From the NCBI RefSeq assembly GCF_003390325.1, contig NZ_QUOK01000001.1, forward strand, positions 124,001-188,000: DNA of 64,000 bases, in the 5' to 3' direction. This stretch comes from Rhodohalobacter sp. SW132. Lineage in GTDB: Bacteria; Bacteroidota; Rhodothermia; Balneolales; Balneolaceae. Position numbers and translations under genes: made by a program. Under the pieces are notes generated by a model. The model was not told the DNA's origin. It made no database searches and worked only from the letters and a program-made list of their open reading frames with translations. Positions 28,169 through 64,000 of the stretch are shown here, piece after piece (within the stretch, counting starts at the first letter, position 1; the number at the start of each line of letters is the position of its first letter).

Positions 28169-28199
28169 AAAGGTTATTATAATTTTTTTATAGCGCTAA

Positions 28200-28331
28200 C
28201 GGAGAGCCATTTAACCGGCTTGGCCATTGATGCGAATAAAGTGAGGAAAACTAACAACTAAAACAAGAGCAGAGGCGTGAAAACATGCCTTACGTGGCCA
28301 AGTCCGCGTTGAAATGGTTGTTATAAAGCGG
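28200..28331 (-). other. attC-like integron recombination site
   Basis: Read on the minus strand. R'' is 'CCGCTTTATAAC' (28331-28320). It is followed by an arm 'CCATTTCAACGCGGACTTGG' that continues to 28295. A 68-base variable middle comes next, then an opposing arm (28226-28207) whose complement is 'CCATTTAACCGGCTTGGCCA', then 'CTCCGTTAGCG' with the R' cut motif G|TTAG at 28200. The two arms pair over CCATTT and CTTGGCCA with unequal bases between, the imperfect fold typical of attC. Total length is 132 bases, inside the known attC range. The site begins 11 bases past the stop of the PLD gene, as in cassettes. Confidence 0.75.
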
Positions 28332-28342
28332 TTTTAGGAATA

Positions 28343-29482
28343 TTATTTAGACAAATCGTCAATTTTAAAAAAATCAAATATGTATTCAAGTTTACCATTC
28401 TTAATTGGATATTCTTCTGGCATTAGCCAACCGGGTATTTCTCCAATTGATGATTTTCCTATGTAGTCAATTTTTAATCCATTTTTCTCTTTTTTGGTCA
28501 AAGCAATTGAATATTTATGCGACATGTCTAATTTCTCAAAAACAAGAAATTCAAGTAGTTTTCTCAATGACTCAGCATTTATAGACTTAATATTTTGCAT
28601 TCTTTTTCCTGAACCTGAACCACTCGAAATGCTATGGATACCCAAAAAGAATTCTCTAATTTCTTGCTCATCTACGGTTTGAAGGTTTTCGGCAATGTGT
28701 TTTGACTTCAAATATCTTTCCAATCTCCAATTGAAGTCTTTTTCTTCTATATATTTGGATATAAAAATTTCAAAATACTTCTGTAGTTCTTTCTTGTCGA
28801 AACGAGAATAGTTAGTCAAACTATAATCTTTAACAATTTTTGTTTTGAAGAAGTGACAAAAAGCATCAAATGTGTATGTAAATGGCAGTTCAGTATTGTT
28901 TAAATGCTCTAATATTCCCTTGACGAATAAGTGTTTTTCAAGAATTCTTGAATAGTTACTTGAATGTGTTTTCGAAATTCTTGCTCTTTTGTATCTCTCG
29001 TTAACCTCAATTTTCTTGTAGAATGTTCGATAGTAAGTAATAGTCTTTAGATCCAATTCGCTGAATGCTTCTTGTTTTAGTTTATGAAGGTAATTTGCTA
29101 TAAAATCAAGATTGTCAGTTGTTAAAACATTCAATTCCTTGTTGCTACCTATCCCGCTATTTGTAAAATTGGAAGACCCGATTATTGCACATAATCCCAG
29201 CCCATTTTTCTTGAAGTAATACACTTTTGAGTGAAGTGAGCTTGTATCATAAACTGAAATAGATTTTTGTGAAGTTTTTAAATCTAAAAGTCTTTGAAAT
29301 AATTCAGGTGTAGCTGGATAAGATAACCTACAAATTAAGGTGAATTTCACACTACGTTCCATGAGATCGAATAGAACATCGTTAGATGCAATAAATGGAG
29401 AGCAAATTAACACCTCGTCAGCTTTATTTATCCATTCTTTTAGCACGGTTCGTAGGCTTATCGTTTCATTATCTATTAGCAT
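28343..29482 (-). CDS. Phospholipase D-superfamily nuclease-like protein (cassette gene)
   Basis: 379 residues. An N-terminal PLD-like domain (about 1-150) has a first strand 'ADEVLICSPFIASNDVLFDL' and one HKD-type motif, 'LHSKVYYFKKNG' followed by 'IIGSSNFTNSG'. The HxK and GSxN parts are present, but the Asp of HxKx4D reads Lys. One motif per chain suggests a dimer, as in Nuc and NgoFVII/BfiI-type restriction nucleases. The C-terminal 230 residues are helical and AT-rich with no domain I know. Phosphodiester cleavage, probably of nucleic acid, is inferred. It occupies the attC-bounded cassette alone, and its base composition is clearly more AT-rich than neighbours outside the island. Confidence 0.8.
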   Translation of the reverse strand: MLIDNETISLRTVLKEWINKADEVLICSPFIASNDVLFDLMERSVKFTLICRLSYPATPELFQRLLDLKTSQKSISVYDTSSLHSKVYYFKKNGLGLCAIIGSSNFTNSGIGSNKELNVLTTDNLDFIANYLHKLKQEAFSELDLKTITYYRTFYKKIEVNERYKRARISKTHSSNYSRILEKHLFVKGILEHLNNTELPFTYTFDAFCHFFKTKIVKDYSLTNYSRFDKKELQKYFEIFISKYIEEKDFNWRLERYLKSKHIAENLQTVDEQEIREFFLGIHSISSGSGSGKRMQNIKSINAESLRKLLEFLVFEKLDMSHKYSIALTKKEKNGLKIDYIGKSSIGEIPGWLMPEEYPIKNGKLEYIFDFFKIDDLSK

Positions 29483-29711
29483 ATCTGTAAGATTTTAAGT
29501 CTTGAATGAACACAAGTTGTTTTCCGCTTTATAACATATAATTCATTTCAGGGCTTTAGACCCTGATTTCTATCGGATAGTAAACCAATTATCTTGATCG
29601 TGCAAAAAGGTTACAAAAAATGCCCGATGAATGTTTATCGGCAGATTCTGTATGTCTGAATAAAAGTATCCACCCGGCCAACAGTATCTTTCGGGTGATG
29701 ATGTCACATAG

Positions 29712-30144
29712 TTGTGGAAATTGGAATTTCAAAAGCAGGGTGCTCCACACTATCACATCATTGTAGGACTGCCAAAACTTTACAAACATGAATATTTTAA
29801 ACATTGGTTAAGTAATTGCTGGTTTGAAGTCACTCAAGGCTTTTGGGATGAAAAAACAAGAGAATTACTTATCAGCCGATACGGAAGTACAGAAAATCAA
29901 GAATACTCGATCTACTGCTCATTATCCCTTTAAGTACCTGAATAAGGAGTTATCTGATGAATCTAAGAATCAAGGTCGCTACTGGGGATGCTCACGTAAC
30001 TGGGGTGATCTCATGCACGAAGCGGAACTTACAGGGAGACAGCTCGTCCAATTCAGACGATTAGTTAAGAAACTCACCAAAAAGAATAACGCGCGAATGG
30101 CTAAGATGATAACCCTTCCTTTAAATCTTACCATTTTTGGCTAA
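29712..30144 (+). pseudogene. Broken HUH-type rolling-circle replication initiator
   Basis: Frame one (from a TTG at 29712) gives 'KLEFQKQGAPHYHIIVGLP', the metal-binding HUH block seen in phage and plasmid Rep proteins. A second frame, open until 30144, gives 'YPFKYLNKELSDESKNQGRY', then 'WG'. This is the catalytic-Tyr helix plus the 'GRxWG' motif that follows in the same families. A one-base shift near 29910-29930 separates them. The N-terminus is missing. It is likely a relic of an inovirus/microvirus or small plasmid integration. Confidence 0.7.
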
Positions 30145-30396: not shown

Positions 30397-33081
30397 ATGG
30401 CAAATATTCAACAAGAATTAGACGAAATTGGATACGGAGCAAAATTTAGAAGAGGCGATTTACATATACATTCTTATGGTGAAAGATATGGTTCCTATGA
30501 TGTAATAGATACTACAATGACTCCTAAAGCTATTGTAGATAAAGCCTTAGAAGAAGGACTTGAAGTAATTAGCATAACTGATCATAATGATATACGAAAT
30601 GCTGAAATTGCAATAGATTATGCAAACGATAAGAATATTTTAGTCATACCTGGAGTTGAGTTTTCAACGACACAGGGTCACTTACTTGTATATTTTCCAA
30701 CATTCAAAAATCTGGATGATTTCTTTGGAAAGATTGATGTGAGTGAAGACAGAAAAACCTGTTTTAAAGGATTTGTCGAGTGCTTAGAATTGGCTGGGAT
30801 TTACGATGGGTTTGGAGTGGCGGCACATATTGATGGACCAAAAGGTTTCGAAACTGAAATTAAAAACTACAACCCTGATAAAGAAAACATAATTAAACAT
30901 CCTAATTTACTTGGTTTAGAGATTGTCAAAAAAGATTCAAGTAAATTTTACACTATAAATGATACAGAAATTGAAAGGATTAACTTCTTAAAGAAAAGGA
31001 ACAAAGAACTTTCAAAAGAAAAAGGATATCCTATTGCGGTAGTCATGAACTCAGATTCTCATAGTCTTTCAAGACTTGGAAGAAATGCAGCAGATGATAA
31101 GAAAATTACAAGATTTAAAATGGATACTTTAACATTTGAATCTTTAAAACATGCCTTCCTTGATTCATTCTCAAGAATACGTATTGAAGAATTTGTTCCA
31201 GAAAATGTACCGCATTTTTACGGTGTTAGAGTTAAAGGAGGGTTTCTACATAATCAACTTATAAAATTTAGCCCTAACCTCACATGCATTATAGGTGGAA
31301 GAGGTGCAGGTAAGTCAACACTTTTAGAGTCTATAAGAGAAGCTTCTGGCAACCAATCTCAGAGTAGTAAAATTGTCGATTCCTCAGTTTGGCCAGAAGA
31401 AATTGAATTAGTATTCAGAGATGAAGTTGGAGAATATCATGTTTTTCAAAGAGATATTGATGAGGAAACTTATAACAAGACAGATCAAGAAGATGGAATC
31501 AAATGTGTACCAATAGAAAGTTATACACAAGGTAGAACTGCTGATTTGATACAGCATGCTAATGATAAACCAGACGTTCTTCTAGAATTTTTTGATGAGT
31601 TTATAGTGTTTGAAGAGTTAAAAGAAGAGGAAGAAAAAGTTAGGGTAGATCTGATAGATAAGATAGACTTAATAGATCATCTTAGAAATGAAGTAAATAA
31701 AATTGAGGAACTTAAGGGGCAAAAAAAAGAAGTCGAAAGAAAACTTGAAGTTCAAGCAAAAAACAAACTAGATGAATTGATAAAACTTGAACAGAACTTA
31801 CAAAAGGGTCGAGAGTTTAGAACTGATTTGATAGAGGATCTAAACAATGCGATTACGACTGTGAGAAAGGTGTTATCCGATAAAACATACTTTAATCAAA
31901 TTAAAGAACAGGACTTTGATTCAATTGAAGTTGGGAAATCAGAATTAGATGAAATTCTTAATGATGTCCAAAAAATAGAAAAGATTATAGAAAAGGCTGG
32001 GTTGAAAATTGATTCCGAGTCTAAAGAGATGATCAAATCCATTAAAGGTAATTTGAAATCTTGGAGACTCGAAGAATCCAAAATTCTATCAAGAATTGAA
32101 GAAAAAAAGAAAGAGTTAGAGGAAAAGGGCATTAGGTTTGATTTGGCTTTTATAAAGTCTCTAACAAAGCAAAATGTCAAAATTGATAAAAAGCTAACTC
32201 AATTAAGAGTTAAGAAAAAGCAATATTTGAAGGAGTTGAAAAATGAAAGAGAACTTATTAAAGAGAGAAAACAATTAAAAAACAGAATTTATCTATACAG
32301 GAAAGTGTGGGCGGATAAAATAAATCAGCTACTAGCAGAAACGGTAACTGATTATAGTATTTCGATTAAATTTAATGAAGGAAAATTCTCAGAAGATTTA
32401 ATTCAATATTTGATGACTGAAATAAATTGGTATCACACTAAGACACCAAAAATGAGGGCTATAATTGAGACTTATCCTCCATATGAATTGCTTAAAATTT
32501 TAAGAAGTAAAGACAGAAAAGAATTTGAAAAAATGGAAAGTCCAGAGGGAGGTAGATTATTCTCCAAGACTGAAGTAGATAGTATAGTTTCTTTGAGCAA
32601 GCCTCATGTTCTGAACAGAATTAAAACAATTAAATTTGATGACTTTCCAAGATTATTAGTGACAAAAGAAGAGAGAGATGAAAGTGGTAAAAAAGTACTG
32701 AGAACTAAAAACTTTACTAACTTATCACTTGGTCAGCAGCAGTCGATTTTACTATCCATATTACTTTACTCAGATAATAAATACCCACTTCTCATAGATC
32801 AACCAGAAGATAATTTGGACAGTGAGTTCATTTATAAGACTATCGTTAAGAATTTAAGGCGGGTTAAAGAAATAAGACAAGTGATAATAGTCACGCATAA
32901 TGCAAATATTGCAGTTTTAGGTGATGCAGAATTAATTATACCATTTAAAAGTACAAGCCAGAGAGCTCATCTAATTGATTCTGGGTCAATTGATAATACA
33001 GAAACAAAAAATATCACTTGTAATATTTTAGAGGGAAGTAAACAAGCTTTTAAAAAGAGAAAGGAGATATATGGAATCTGA
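30397..33081 (+). CDS. PHP phosphoesterase fused to SMC/ABC-type ATPase (Ppl/TrlF-like, predicted anti-phage)
   Basis: 894 residues, strongly AT-rich. The N-terminal PHP domain (about 15-260) has H23-x-H25 ('GDLHIHSYG'), 'ISITDHNDI', 'VAAHIDGPKGF' and 'VMNSDSHSLSR', the metal ligands of PHP phosphoesterases. An SMC-type ATPase head begins at about 285 with Walker A 'IIGGRGAGKSTL'. A long coiled coil covers about 400-660. The second half-head carries the signature 'LSLGQQQS' and Walker B 'PLLIDQPEDNLDS'. PHP-SMC proteins of this layout are named TrlF-family and Ppl, the latter a reported single-gene antiviral system. It probably cleaves nucleic acid under ATP control. Its neighbours are a broken Rep gene and tRNA-Val. 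Confidence 0.88.
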   Translation: MANIQQELDEIGYGAKFRRGDLHIHSYGERYGSYDVIDTTMTPKAIVDKALEEGLEVISITDHNDIRNAEIAIDYANDKNILVIPGVEFSTTQGHLLVYFPTFKNLDDFFGKIDVSEDRKTCFKGFVECLELAGIYDGFGVAAHIDGPKGFETEIKNYNPDKENIIKHPNLLGLEIVKKDSSKFYTINDTEIERINFLKKRNKELSKEKGYPIAVVMNSDSHSLSRLGRNAADDKKITRFKMDTLTFESLKHAFLDSFSRIRIEEFVPENVPHFYGVRVKGGFLHNQLIKFSPNLTCIIGGRGAGKSTLLESIREASGNQSQSSKIVDSSVWPEEIELVFRDEVGEYHVFQRDIDEETYNKTDQEDGIKCVPIESYTQGRTADLIQHANDKPDVLLEFFDEFIVFEELKEEEEKVRVDLIDKIDLIDHLRNEVNKIEELKGQKKEVERKLEVQAKNKLDELIKLEQNLQKGREFRTDLIEDLNNAITTVRKVLSDKTYFNQIKEQDFDSIEVGKSELDEILNDVQKIEKIIEKAGLKIDSESKEMIKSIKGNLKSWRLEESKILSRIEEKKKELEEKGIRFDLAFIKSLTKQNVKIDKKLTQLRVKKKQYLKELKNERELIKERKQLKNRIYLYRKVWADKINQLLAETVTDYSISIKFNEGKFSEDLIQYLMTEINWYHTKTPKMRAIIETYPPYELLKILRSKDRKEFEKMESPEGGRLFSKTEVDSIVSLSKPHVLNRIKTIKFDDFPRLLVTKEERDESGKKVLRTKNFTNLSLGQQQSILLSILLYSDNKYPLLIDQPEDNLDSEFIYKTIVKNLRRVKEIRQVIIVTHNANIAVLGDAELIIPFKSTSQRAHLIDSGSIDNTETKNITCNILEGSKQAFKKRKEIYGI

Positions 33082-33142: not shown

Positions 33143-33177
33143 AAAACCCATGCAAATCAATGACTTACATGGGTTTT
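33143..33177 (-). terminator. Rho-independent terminator of tRNA-Val
   Basis: On the minus strand AAAACCCATG pairs with CATGGGTTTT around a 15-base loop, followed by 'tgttttta'. It begins 2 bases after the tRNA discriminator base. Confidence 0.8.
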
Positions 33178-33179
33178 AG

Positions 33180-33254
33180 TGGGCGCTGAGGGATTCGAAC
33201 CCCCGACCCCCTCGGTGTAAACGAGATGCTCTAAACCAACTGAGCTAAGCGCCC
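33180..33254 (-). tRNA. tRNA-Val (anticodon UAC)
   Basis: The minus strand folds as a full cloverleaf. The acceptor is GGGCGCT/AGCGCCC with discriminator A. The D arm is 'GCTCAGTTGGTTTAGAGC'. The anticodon stem CTCG/CGAG has loop TTTACAC (anticodon TAC), and the T arm is 'CGGGGGTTCGAATCCCTC'. The 3' CCA is not encoded. The AT-rich accessory block ends next to it, which fits a tRNA-side insertion hotspot. Confidence 0.97.
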
Positions 33255-62394: not shown

Positions 62395-64000
62395 TTAAGA
62401 GGCTGATGCAAGATCACGAAGTGTGTTTGCAATTTTTGTCACTTTATCCCCATTGGAGGAAGATCCGGCATGATTTTCAAGTTCTCCGGCGAGCTCAGTA
62501 AGCATACGTCTTTGTGCTGAACCGTTGGTATTTTCCGCTTCCTGTACACCTCTGCGGATGCTGTTAATAGCGGAAATATCCAGTTCACGATTTCGCTCAA
62601 GCTGATCGAGATAAGCTTTCGCCAGCGCAAAAGATGACGGGAATGAGTATTTAGGCTGACCCTGGGGATTGAAATAATCCATGGAGACTGTATGCATGGC
62701 ATCGATTTCATTCTGGGTAATAAATTCACTTGGAACCAGTTCAAAAATATCAAGTCCGCGTGCAATCTCTGAGTTTACCAGGTATCCGTTGTACCAGTAA
62801 ATCGACCAGCTGCCACCGGTTTCCACTCGTTCAGCGCTGATTGGTCCGCGATCGTGAAACGCAATCTCTACTGGATTTTTTGGATCGGTAAAATCAAACA
62901 CATTGATCCCGCCCTGGTACCACGACTGCACCATAATATCACGGTCGGGGATTGGAATCATCGAGCCGTTATGAGCTACACAATTCTCTGTTTCGGTCTG
63001 CGGTGCATCCATTTTGAAATAGCTTTGAAAAACCATCTCGCCGTTTTCTATGCTATAGATAGCGTTTGCTCCCCATTCGTAGGGATCTTCCTCGCGGCAC
63101 TTTGGCTGTGTACCGCCGCCCCATTCATCCGTAAAGAGTACGGTTGTGCCATCATTGTTAAAGGTAGCAGAGTGCCAGTAAGAGAAATTTGAATCGGCTA
63201 CTGCATCAATCCGAACAGGATTCACCGGGTCTGAGATATCGAGTAAAAGTCCCAGCCCTTCACACGCACCACCTGCGAGACCAATTTCCGGGTAGAGCGT
63301 AATGTCGTGACATTGGTTGGGTCCGAGTGCTTCAGAACCTCGACCTCTTGCGGCTAACATCTCGTCAATAAATTCAGGCAGGCGTTCTTGTAAGGCTGCG
63401 CTGTCGGCTGCAGTGGGTTCACCCTCGCCGTCTCTTTCGCTGACCAGTCTCTGCAGAAACCCTCGGGCCATACCGTTCGGAATGACTCGTTCGCGGCCCA
63501 TCATTTCGCCTACGAAACGTCCCTGTTCACGAGCCTGTTCGATTCGCTCCTGCTCTTCTGCAGTGAGTTCCCGAACGGGGGGTGCTTCAAGGCCGTCAAA
63601 AATCCGGGGTGAGTTTGCAATTGCGGCATCCTGTGGATTTGCAAGCGGTACCTTAATAACCTCAATTCTGAAAAGCGGACTATCGGGATCTTCATCAGGA
63701 AAGGCGGTAGTACAGCCGGGAAGCTCTTCTTCGGGACGGACCGGTGCAGATCCGGAAACATACACATATACGTTTTCGTCATCATTCGGGTCGACCAAAA
63801 CAGAGTGGGTGTGTGATCCCCGGCAGGTTTGAACATTTGCAATGTACTCGGGATTGTACATATCAGAAATATCGAATATTCGGATACCGCGCAGCCGGTC
63901 GGCACTTACGGTCTCCCGTACGCCTTCCGTACCGCAATCTAACCGGCCGCCCAATCCTTCACCGGATACAAAAAGCAGATCTCCGTAAACGGAAACATCA
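62395..64000 (-). CDS. LVIVD-repeat secreted protein, N-terminus cut by window edge
   Basis: The frame stays open to base 64000 ('DVSVYGDLLFVSGEGLGGRL' precedes the first TTG), so the start lies to the right. At least 534 residues contain LVIVD-type blades: 'IRIFDISDMYNPEYIANVQT', 'GLLLDISDPVNPVRIDAV' and 'INVFDFTDPKNPVEIAF'. The C-terminal 110 residues are helical ('ISAINSIRRGVQEAENTNG') and may act as a spacer. No enzyme motif is visible. It is related in design to the choice-of-anchor B protein at 39.8 kb. Confidence 0.85.
   Translation of the reverse strand, partial: DVSVYGDLLFVSGEGLGGRLDCGTEGVRETVSADRLRGIRIFDISDMYNPEYIANVQTCRGSHTHSVLVDPNDDENVYVYVSGSAPVRPEEELPGCTTAFPDEDPDSPLFRIEVIKVPLANPQDAAIANSPRIFDGLEAPPVRELTAEEQERIEQAREQGRFVGEMMGRERVIPNGMARGFLQRLVSERDGEGEPTAADSAALQERLPEFIDEMLAARGRGSEALGPNQCHDITLYPEIGLAGGACEGLGLLLDISDPVNPVRIDAVADSNFSYWHSATFNNDGTTVLFTDEWGGGTQPKCREEDPYEWGANAIYSIENGEMVFQSYFKMDAPQTETENCVAHNGSMIPIPDRDIMVQSWYQGGINVFDFTDPKNPVEIAFHDRGPISAERVETGGSWSIYWYNGYLVNSEIARGLDIFELVPSEFITQNEIDAMHTVSMDYFNPQGQPKYSFPSSFALAKAYLDQLERNRELDISAINSIRRGVQEAENTNGSAQRRMLTELAGELENHAGSSSNGDKVTKIANTLRDLASAS

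What the first reader, a model, noticed from the sequence alone, without database searches (positions are those of the whole stretch)
30397..33081. PHP-SMC ATPase: candidate single-gene anti-phage system beside tRNA-Val
Seen: full PHP metal motifs, Walker A, coiled coil, ABC signature and Walker B in one chain, with base composition far more AT-rich than flanking fad genes. Known: PHP-ATPase proteins (Ppl, TrlF family) include a reported antiviral system. Inference: a horizontally acquired defence gene at a tRNA hotspot, only 0.9 kb from a cassette-borne nuclease transcribed divergently, so the two might form a functional island.
Basis: partly seen in the sequence, partly recalled or inferred. 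Interest (0 to 1): 0.62.

Follow-up and report, generated by a model that had tools for sequence, protein, structure and literature searches.

The report
Stand-alone PHP–ATPase anti-phage gene (TrlF family)
This is a horizontally acquired single gene that fuses a DNA-cutting enzyme domain to a DNA-handling motor of the Rad50/SMC type; its relatives sit in phages, plasmids and defence islands, so it is most likely an anti-virus gene that works like the known Ppl protein without being Ppl itself.

Summary
Window 30397-33081 (+) is an intact 894-aa protein with an N-terminal PHP domain and a split Rad50/SMC-type ABC head on a coiled coil. All PHP ligand and ATPase motifs are present, GC is 31% against 46% around it, and tRNA-Val lies 98 bp away. 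By the NCBI model it is a TrlF-family ATPase (510 bits, cut-off 350). It is not Ppl: it scores 152 bits against Ppl's cut-off of 1000, is 18.5% identical to E. coli Ppl and lies in another clade. Ppl nests inside the TrlF radiation and has the same ligand set, so "works like Ppl" is reasonable but inferred. The window gene belongs to a well-supported stand-alone clade (12 of 12 with intact PHP, none with the TrlG partner), found in Cohnella, proteobacterial plasmids (some beside BREX) and P2-like phages (the gpA-gpQ defence hotspot). Two close relatives carry it as an integron cassette. It is absent from 57 relatives and follows a decayed rolling-circle Rep gene. The suggested functional island with the PLD gene is not supported: PLD is a separate attC-bearing cassette with no co-occurrence. 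The tRNA-hotspot claim has weak support. A good candidate defence gene of a largely known kind.

The parts
30397..33081 (+). TrlF-family PHP-ABC ATPase, 894 aa, stand-alone clade
   Evidence: ORF; NF045780 510 bits vs cut-off 350; clade and motifs
30442..31203 (+). PHP phosphoesterase domain (residues 16-269), metal ligands intact
   Evidence: Pfam PHP; EndoQ fold match Z 21.4, rmsd 3.0, 220 aligned; ligands invariant
31210..31611 (+). ABC head N-lobe (residues 272-405) with Walker A at 31294-31317
31612..32343 (+). coiled coil (residues 406-649), no CxxC zinc hook
   Evidence: predicted helices; no CxxC motif
32344..33063 (+). ABC head C-lobe (residues 650-889): signature 32722-32742, Walker B, H-switch
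29715..30141 (+). decayed, frameshifted rolling-circle replication initiator (REP_ORF2/G2P type): relic of a mobile element next to the gene
   Evidence: Pfam REP_ORF2-G2P 3.4e-5 for the first piece, just under the family's curated cut-off; second piece 47% identical to an intact Rep in a relative that has a tyrosine recombinase gene close by
33143..33177 (-). terminator hairpin of tRNA-Val; conserved core DNA resumes about here
   Evidence: terminator scan; alignment with a relative starts at 33143
33179..33254 (-). tRNA-Val(tac), conserved beside thiolase/fadB in relatives
28343..29482 (-). PLD nuclease (NgoFVII/DrmC-like), separate gene cassette; not part of the same system on present evidence
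   Evidence: Pfam RE_NgoFVII 1.4e-12
28190..28334 (-). attC-like site of the PLD cassette (other cassette boundary at 29524-29535)
   Evidence: single-strand DNA fold z -3.4 on one strand, -2.0 on the other; matching boundary repeat

Best explanation
The gene encodes a stand-alone TrlF-family PHP-ABC ATPase, acquired on a mobile element, that most likely defends the cell against phages (or against other mobile DNA). Shown from sequence: an intact PHP metal site, an intact ABC ATPase and a coiled coil in one chain, sporadic distribution, and mobile or defence-rich surroundings of its kin. Inferred: two ATPase heads pair over DNA or a DNA end. The nucleotide state of the head holds the PHP domain off in healthy cells, and an infection signal (free 3' ends and/or a fall in the nucleotide pool, as reported for E. 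coli Ppl) releases a metal-dependent nuclease, probably a 3'-5' exonuclease on single strands, that degrades the invading DNA.
For: Family: NF045780 510 bits, cut-off 350. Ligands and ATPase motifs conserved in the clade, and E. coli Ppl has the same PHP motif set. The PHP fold matches EndoQ, a PHP enzyme that cuts DNA (Z 21.4). Ppl is reported as an NTP-inhibited ssDNA 3'-5' exonuclease (PMC12904381). Context of close homologues: Yersinia phage copy between gpA and gpQ, described as a P2 defence hotspot (PMC9122126); beside portal and terminase in a viral contig; beside BREX on two plasmids; next to the integrase gene in a Vibrio virus record; serine recombinases in Cohnella; integron cassettes in L112 and L128. 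Wider family: hsdS-trlF-hsdR in the same genome and hsdR-trlF-trlG-hsdS on a Klebsiella plasmid. Sporadic: 35 of 394 phylum genomes over the cut-off, none of 57 relatives with a close full-length hit.
Against: No phage test exists for this clade. Identity to Ppl is only 18.5%, so trigger and substrate may differ. The founding TrlF was described in a temperature-dependent growth-arrest operon, not as anti-phage (PMC7554251). The plasmid and phage collections bias the context towards mobile DNA, and no matched control set was scored. PHP sites are degenerate in other TrlF clades, so the nuclease is not essential to every member.
Confidence: 0.7

Rival explanations
1. It is a maintenance or competition gene of the mobile element itself (against plasmids or rival elements, or a SbcC/RecN-like DNA-end factor), not primarily anti-phage.
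For: The head is Rad50/SMC/RecN-like; kin are cargo of plasmids, conjugative and recombinase-bearing elements; a relic Rep lies upstream in the window.
Against: Placement at a phage defence hotspot and inside RM and BREX loci; close architecture and site match with Ppl.
Confidence: 0.15
2. It is a stress or temperature growth-arrest gene, like the Photorhabdus temperature restriction locus.
For: The family is named after that operon (PMC7554251).
Against: There the mutations that relieved the arrest hit trlG, not trlF; the window clade has no trlG (0 of 12) and a full PHP site, unlike the main TrlG-coupled clade (TNHN and SDxK).
Confidence: 0.07
3. The PHP-ATPase and the divergent PLD nuclease form one two-gene island system.
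For: They are 914 bp apart, both AT-rich (31%), both absent from relatives.
Against: PLD is a self-contained gene cassette with its own attC-like site; the relic Rep lies between them; among ORFs of about 98 TrlF-family loci only one weak PLD hit (L109, about 6 kb away) was found.
Confidence: 0.04

Closest known systems
TrlF family (NCBIfam NF045780; Photorhabdus temperature restriction locus F)
   Same: Whole-length match over the family cut-off; same PHP-ABC-coiled coil-ABC order.
   Different: No TrlG (AlbA_2 + HATPase_c_4) partner; PHP site intact, whereas the main TrlG-coupled clade has TNHN and SDxK; separate, well-supported clade.
Ppl (Gao 2020 single-gene anti-phage system; NF042955, PADLOC Ppl)
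   Same: Same domain order, similar length (891 aa), same PHP ligand motifs; PADLOC Ppl profile matched at 1e-27.
   Different: 152 bits against an equivalog cut-off of 1000; 18.5% identity; another clade on the tree.
EndoQ (PHP-type DNA endonuclease, 5zb8/7k30)
   Same: Best solved match seen for the PHP domain: Z 21.4, rmsd 3.0, 220 residues, 24% identity.
   Different: EndoQ has no ABC ATPase head (own knowledge).
Rad50/SMC/RecN-type heads, including Wadjet JetC and Lamassu LmuB
   Same: The head folds alike; such heads sense DNA ends or topology in some defence systems (PMC12904381).
   Different: Short coiled coil, no zinc hook; the nuclease is fused in the same chain.

Membership tests
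TrlF family (NF045780) | score over the curated equivalog cut-off across the whole protein | tested here: met
   510.1 bits, cut-off 350, residues 14-893 of 894
TrlF-TrlG pair (founding Photorhabdus locus) | operon with TrlG (AlbA_2 + HATPase_c_4) | tested here: not met
   No such gene beside it in the window; 0 of 12 clade members have one. The partner is not required by the NCBI TrlF model.
Ppl (NF042955) | score over the curated equivalog cut-off | tested here: not met
   152 bits, cut-off 1000
Ppl (NF042955) | intact PHP active site and ABC ATPase in one stand-alone chain | tested here: met
Ppl (NF042955) | groups with E. coli Ppl in a tree | tested here: not met
   Window clade SH-aLRT 100; Ppl groups with L171/L178 (100) in another part of the tree
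Ppl (NF042955) | protects against phage; NTP-inhibited ssDNA 3'-5' exonuclease | not testable with these tools
   Reported for E. coli Ppl only (PMC12904381)
Gene cassette of an integron | own attC site after the gene | tested here: inconclusive
   No attC-like site seen next to the window's TrlF gene by inspection or by a simple scan, but that scan also missed the PLD attC; attC-like sites do flank the gene in relatives L112 and L128

The most novel reading that the evidence does not exclude
The window gene represents a distinct single-gene defence family, parallel to Ppl, with an always-intact PHP nuclease, that moves between phyla as phage cargo, plasmid cargo and even as a 2.7-kb integron cassette, and whose trigger differs from that of Ppl.
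Probability: 0.4. Interest if true: 0.55.

Novelty: new member of a known kind. Interest (0 to 1): 0.42.

Why it matters
Among PHP-ATPases, E. coli Ppl is the one whose mechanism I found reported, yet the wider family is large and split into clades that differ in partner genes and in whether the PHP site is intact. The window clade is the simplest form (one gene, full active site, carried across phyla), which makes it a clean test of whether PHP-ATPases as a class are nucleotide-gated anti-phage exonucleases. The integron-cassette form in two relatives would show that integrons carry this kind of defence gene.

Tried and rejected
1) Idea that PHP sites decay when another nuclease (TrlG or HsdR) takes over: many TrlG-coupled and RM-associated members do have degenerate PHP motifs, but on the tree only 4 independent pairs are available and they do not support a correlation; not claimed, kept as an observation. 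2) Direct repeat of the tRNA end as an integration scar: nothing of 16 bases or more (two mismatches allowed) elsewhere in the window, only scattered 14-base chance matches. 3) TrlF in the window as a gene cassette: no attC seen next to it, but the scan used was insensitive. 4) Recurrent Rep gene beside TrlF: two Pfam Rep hits among clade neighbours were not found with the window's Rep relic or its homologue as query, so no association is claimed. 5) Clean empty-site comparison: the side beyond the tRNA is rearranged even within the genus, so the exact left end of the insertion is not defined. 6) Literature search for TrlF as a defence gene found none in the held library. 7) The Foldseek viral library returned mainly SMC/Rad50-type matches. 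8) The neighbourhood scan of the clade had no matched control set beyond the tRNA-Val loci of relatives, so no enrichment figure is given.

Full report
WHAT IS THERE. Window 30397-33081 on the + strand is one intact 894-codon ORF. Pfam sees PHP (21-111), SMC_N (286-321) and AAA_21 (567-838). NCBIfam calls it TrlF_fam_ATP with 510 bits over residues 14-893 (cut-off 350) and gives only 152 bits to the Ppl equivalog (cut-off 1000). PADLOC's Ppl profile matches at 1e-27, best in the C-terminal head. GC is 31.4% and GC3 23%, against 46.4 +/- 2.4% GC for equal windows elsewhere in the 64 kb (z -6.3); flanking thiolase and fadB are 49-51%.

ANATOMY. A structure model from 34 aligned relatives is confident (mean pLDDT 88.4, pTM 0.75). 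Residues 16-269 align with the PHP-type DNA endonuclease EndoQ (5zb8, Z 21.4, rmsd 3.0, 220 residues, 24% identity), and 272-889 with SMC, Rad50 and RecF heads (Z about 19-23). The coiled coil (406-649) is short and has no CxxC hook. The PHP motif residues (D21, H23, H25; D62, H63; E88; H95; H144; D220, H222), the signature, Walker B with E804, and H834 are invariant in nine close sequences at 36-47% identity to the window protein; Walker A is kept in all but L128, where the lysine reads T. That the listed PHP residues are the metal ligands is taken from established knowledge of PHP enzymes, not from a metal-bound structure of this protein.

FAMILY PLACE. A tree of the ATPase part only (PHP columns left out) of 64 members puts the window protein in a clade of 12 with SH-aLRT 100; with E. 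coli Ppl, Spaf_1101 and others added it is again a clade of 11 with support 100. The clade holds Cohnella (L132), other whole-genome hits (L112, L124, L128), proteobacterial plasmid copies (L054-L056) and phage or viral-contig copies (L052, L139-L141). Every member keeps the PHP motifs and none has a TrlG partner. E. coli Ppl (F plasmid, L193) is 18.5% identical, carries the same PHP motif set (HxH, SDHN, E, AH, SDAH) and lies in another part of the same radiation. So Ppl is nested within TrlF-like proteins, but the window protein is not a Ppl. The tree is a quick one with long branches; only the well-supported clades are used.

OTHER FORMS OF THE FAMILY. Many members are followed by TrlG (AlbA_2 + HATPase_c_4), the founding pair from the Photorhabdus temperature restriction locus (PMC7554251). 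In one TrlG-coupled clade the motifs read TNHN and SDxK, in another HxH is lost; five other TrlG-coupled members have an intact site. A third group has TDY in place of TDH and includes members near type I or IIG RM genes. I tested whether TrlG coupling and PHP decay go together on the tree: with only four independent pairs there is no support.

SURROUNDINGS OF CLOSE RELATIVES. Yersinia phage vB_YenM_42.18 carries a copy between gpA and the portal gene gpQ, the locus described as a hotspot of anti-phage systems in P2-like phages (PMC9122126). A viral contig has it beside portal and terminase genes (L139). A Vibrio virus record has a split copy next to an integrase-like gene. Two plasmid copies adjoin BREX genes (Paraburkholderia, with an in-frame stop; Polaromonas); others lie near relaxase or tyrosine recombinase genes. 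Cohnella has two serine recombinases next to it, with a SPOUT methyltransferase (rlmH-like) gene beyond. These collections favour mobile DNA by design; L112, L124, L128 and L132 come from whole genomes. In L112 the gene lies between two 141-nt direct repeats (89% alike) with attC anatomy, and in L128 between repeated attC-like sites of an array, so in both it is very likely an integron gene cassette.

SURROUNDINGS IN THE WINDOW. No full-length close homologue occurs in 57 relatives; in the phylum 35 of 394 genomes pass the family cut-off. The genome itself has a second, distant member between hsdS and hsdR with four-base overlaps. Upstream of the gene, 29715-30141 holds a frameshifted relic of a rolling-circle initiator (Pfam REP_ORF2-G2P 3.4e-5); its second piece is 47% identical to an intact Rep in a relative, where a tyrosine recombinase gene lies close by. 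On the right, core DNA resumes at about 33143, the terminator of tRNA-Val; tRNA-Val, thiolase and fadB stay together in most relatives while the other side differs. In several relatives egtB/egtD-like genes (named from sequence, own knowledge) lie beyond the tRNA, and in one of them a type IIG RM gene sits between. No tRNA-end duplication was found in the window, so the hotspot reading is weak.

THE PLD NEIGHBOUR. The divergent PLD gene is NgoFVII/DrmC-like. It is bounded by a 12-bp boundary sequence and a hairpin-forming attC-like site (z -3.4), is absent from relatives and, apart from one partial weak match, from the plasmid collection, and does not recur beside TrlF genes. The two genes look like separate arrivals.

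MECHANISM. Shown: the parts. Reported for Ppl, not for this protein: an ssDNA 3'-5' exonuclease held off by NTPs bound to PHP and NTPase domains and released by nucleotide depletion together with 3'-OH ends (PMC12904381). Inferred here by architecture and matching PHP motifs: the same logic of an ATPase-gated PHP nuclease acting on invading DNA. A correlation of a PADLOC-called ppl gene with phage resistance in S. epidermidis (PMC13152194) is in line, but the S. epidermidis plasmid copy examined here lies in the Ppl-side group, not in the window clade.

VERDICT. A real, horizontally acquired, probably functional candidate defence gene; new member of a known kind. The unusual points are its position outside both named systems and the cassette form in two relatives.

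Noticed in passing
L150 4767-8511, L162 5803-9753, L153 5980-9904 and similar viral contigs: TrlF-like ATPases without a PHP domain (about 620-680 aa), followed by a HEAT-repeat histidine-kinase-like ATPase and a response-regulator receiver gene: a recurrent three-gene unit in viral contigs.
   Followed up: partly
L112 8244-11232 and L128 6408-9347: Close relatives of the window gene are flanked by attC-like sites, i.e. look like integron gene cassettes, long ones of 2.7 kb.
   Followed up: partly
L128 6596-9316: The Walker A lysine of this relative reads T (GGRGTGTS), so its ATPase may be impaired although the PHP site is intact.
   Followed up: no
L131 7034-14150 (own genome, contig 10): A second TrlF-family gene lies inside a type I RM operon, hsdS-trlF-hsdR, with four-base overlaps.
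   Followed up: partly
window 29715-30141: Frameshifted relic of a rolling-circle replication initiator; an intact homologue in L138 8479-9504 has a tyrosine recombinase gene close by.
   Followed up: yes
L090 11076-14711: In a relative, a type IIG restriction-methylation gene lies between tRNA-Val and an egtB-like gene, the same side of the tRNA where the window has TrlF.
   Followed up: partly
L196 8-8014 (Klebsiella plasmid): hsdR-trlF-trlG-hsdS in one row: TrlFG embedded in a type I RM locus.
   Followed up: no
TrlF-family alignment, positions 62 and 222 of the window protein: PHP sites are degenerate in several clades (TNHN/SDxK, lost HxH, TDY); no independent correlation with TrlG could be shown.
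   Followed up: yes
window 62429-63999: This stretch matches DNA that lies about 2 kb on the other side of tRNA-Val in a same-genus genome (L083 5815-7385): the region is rearranged between the two.
   Followed up: no
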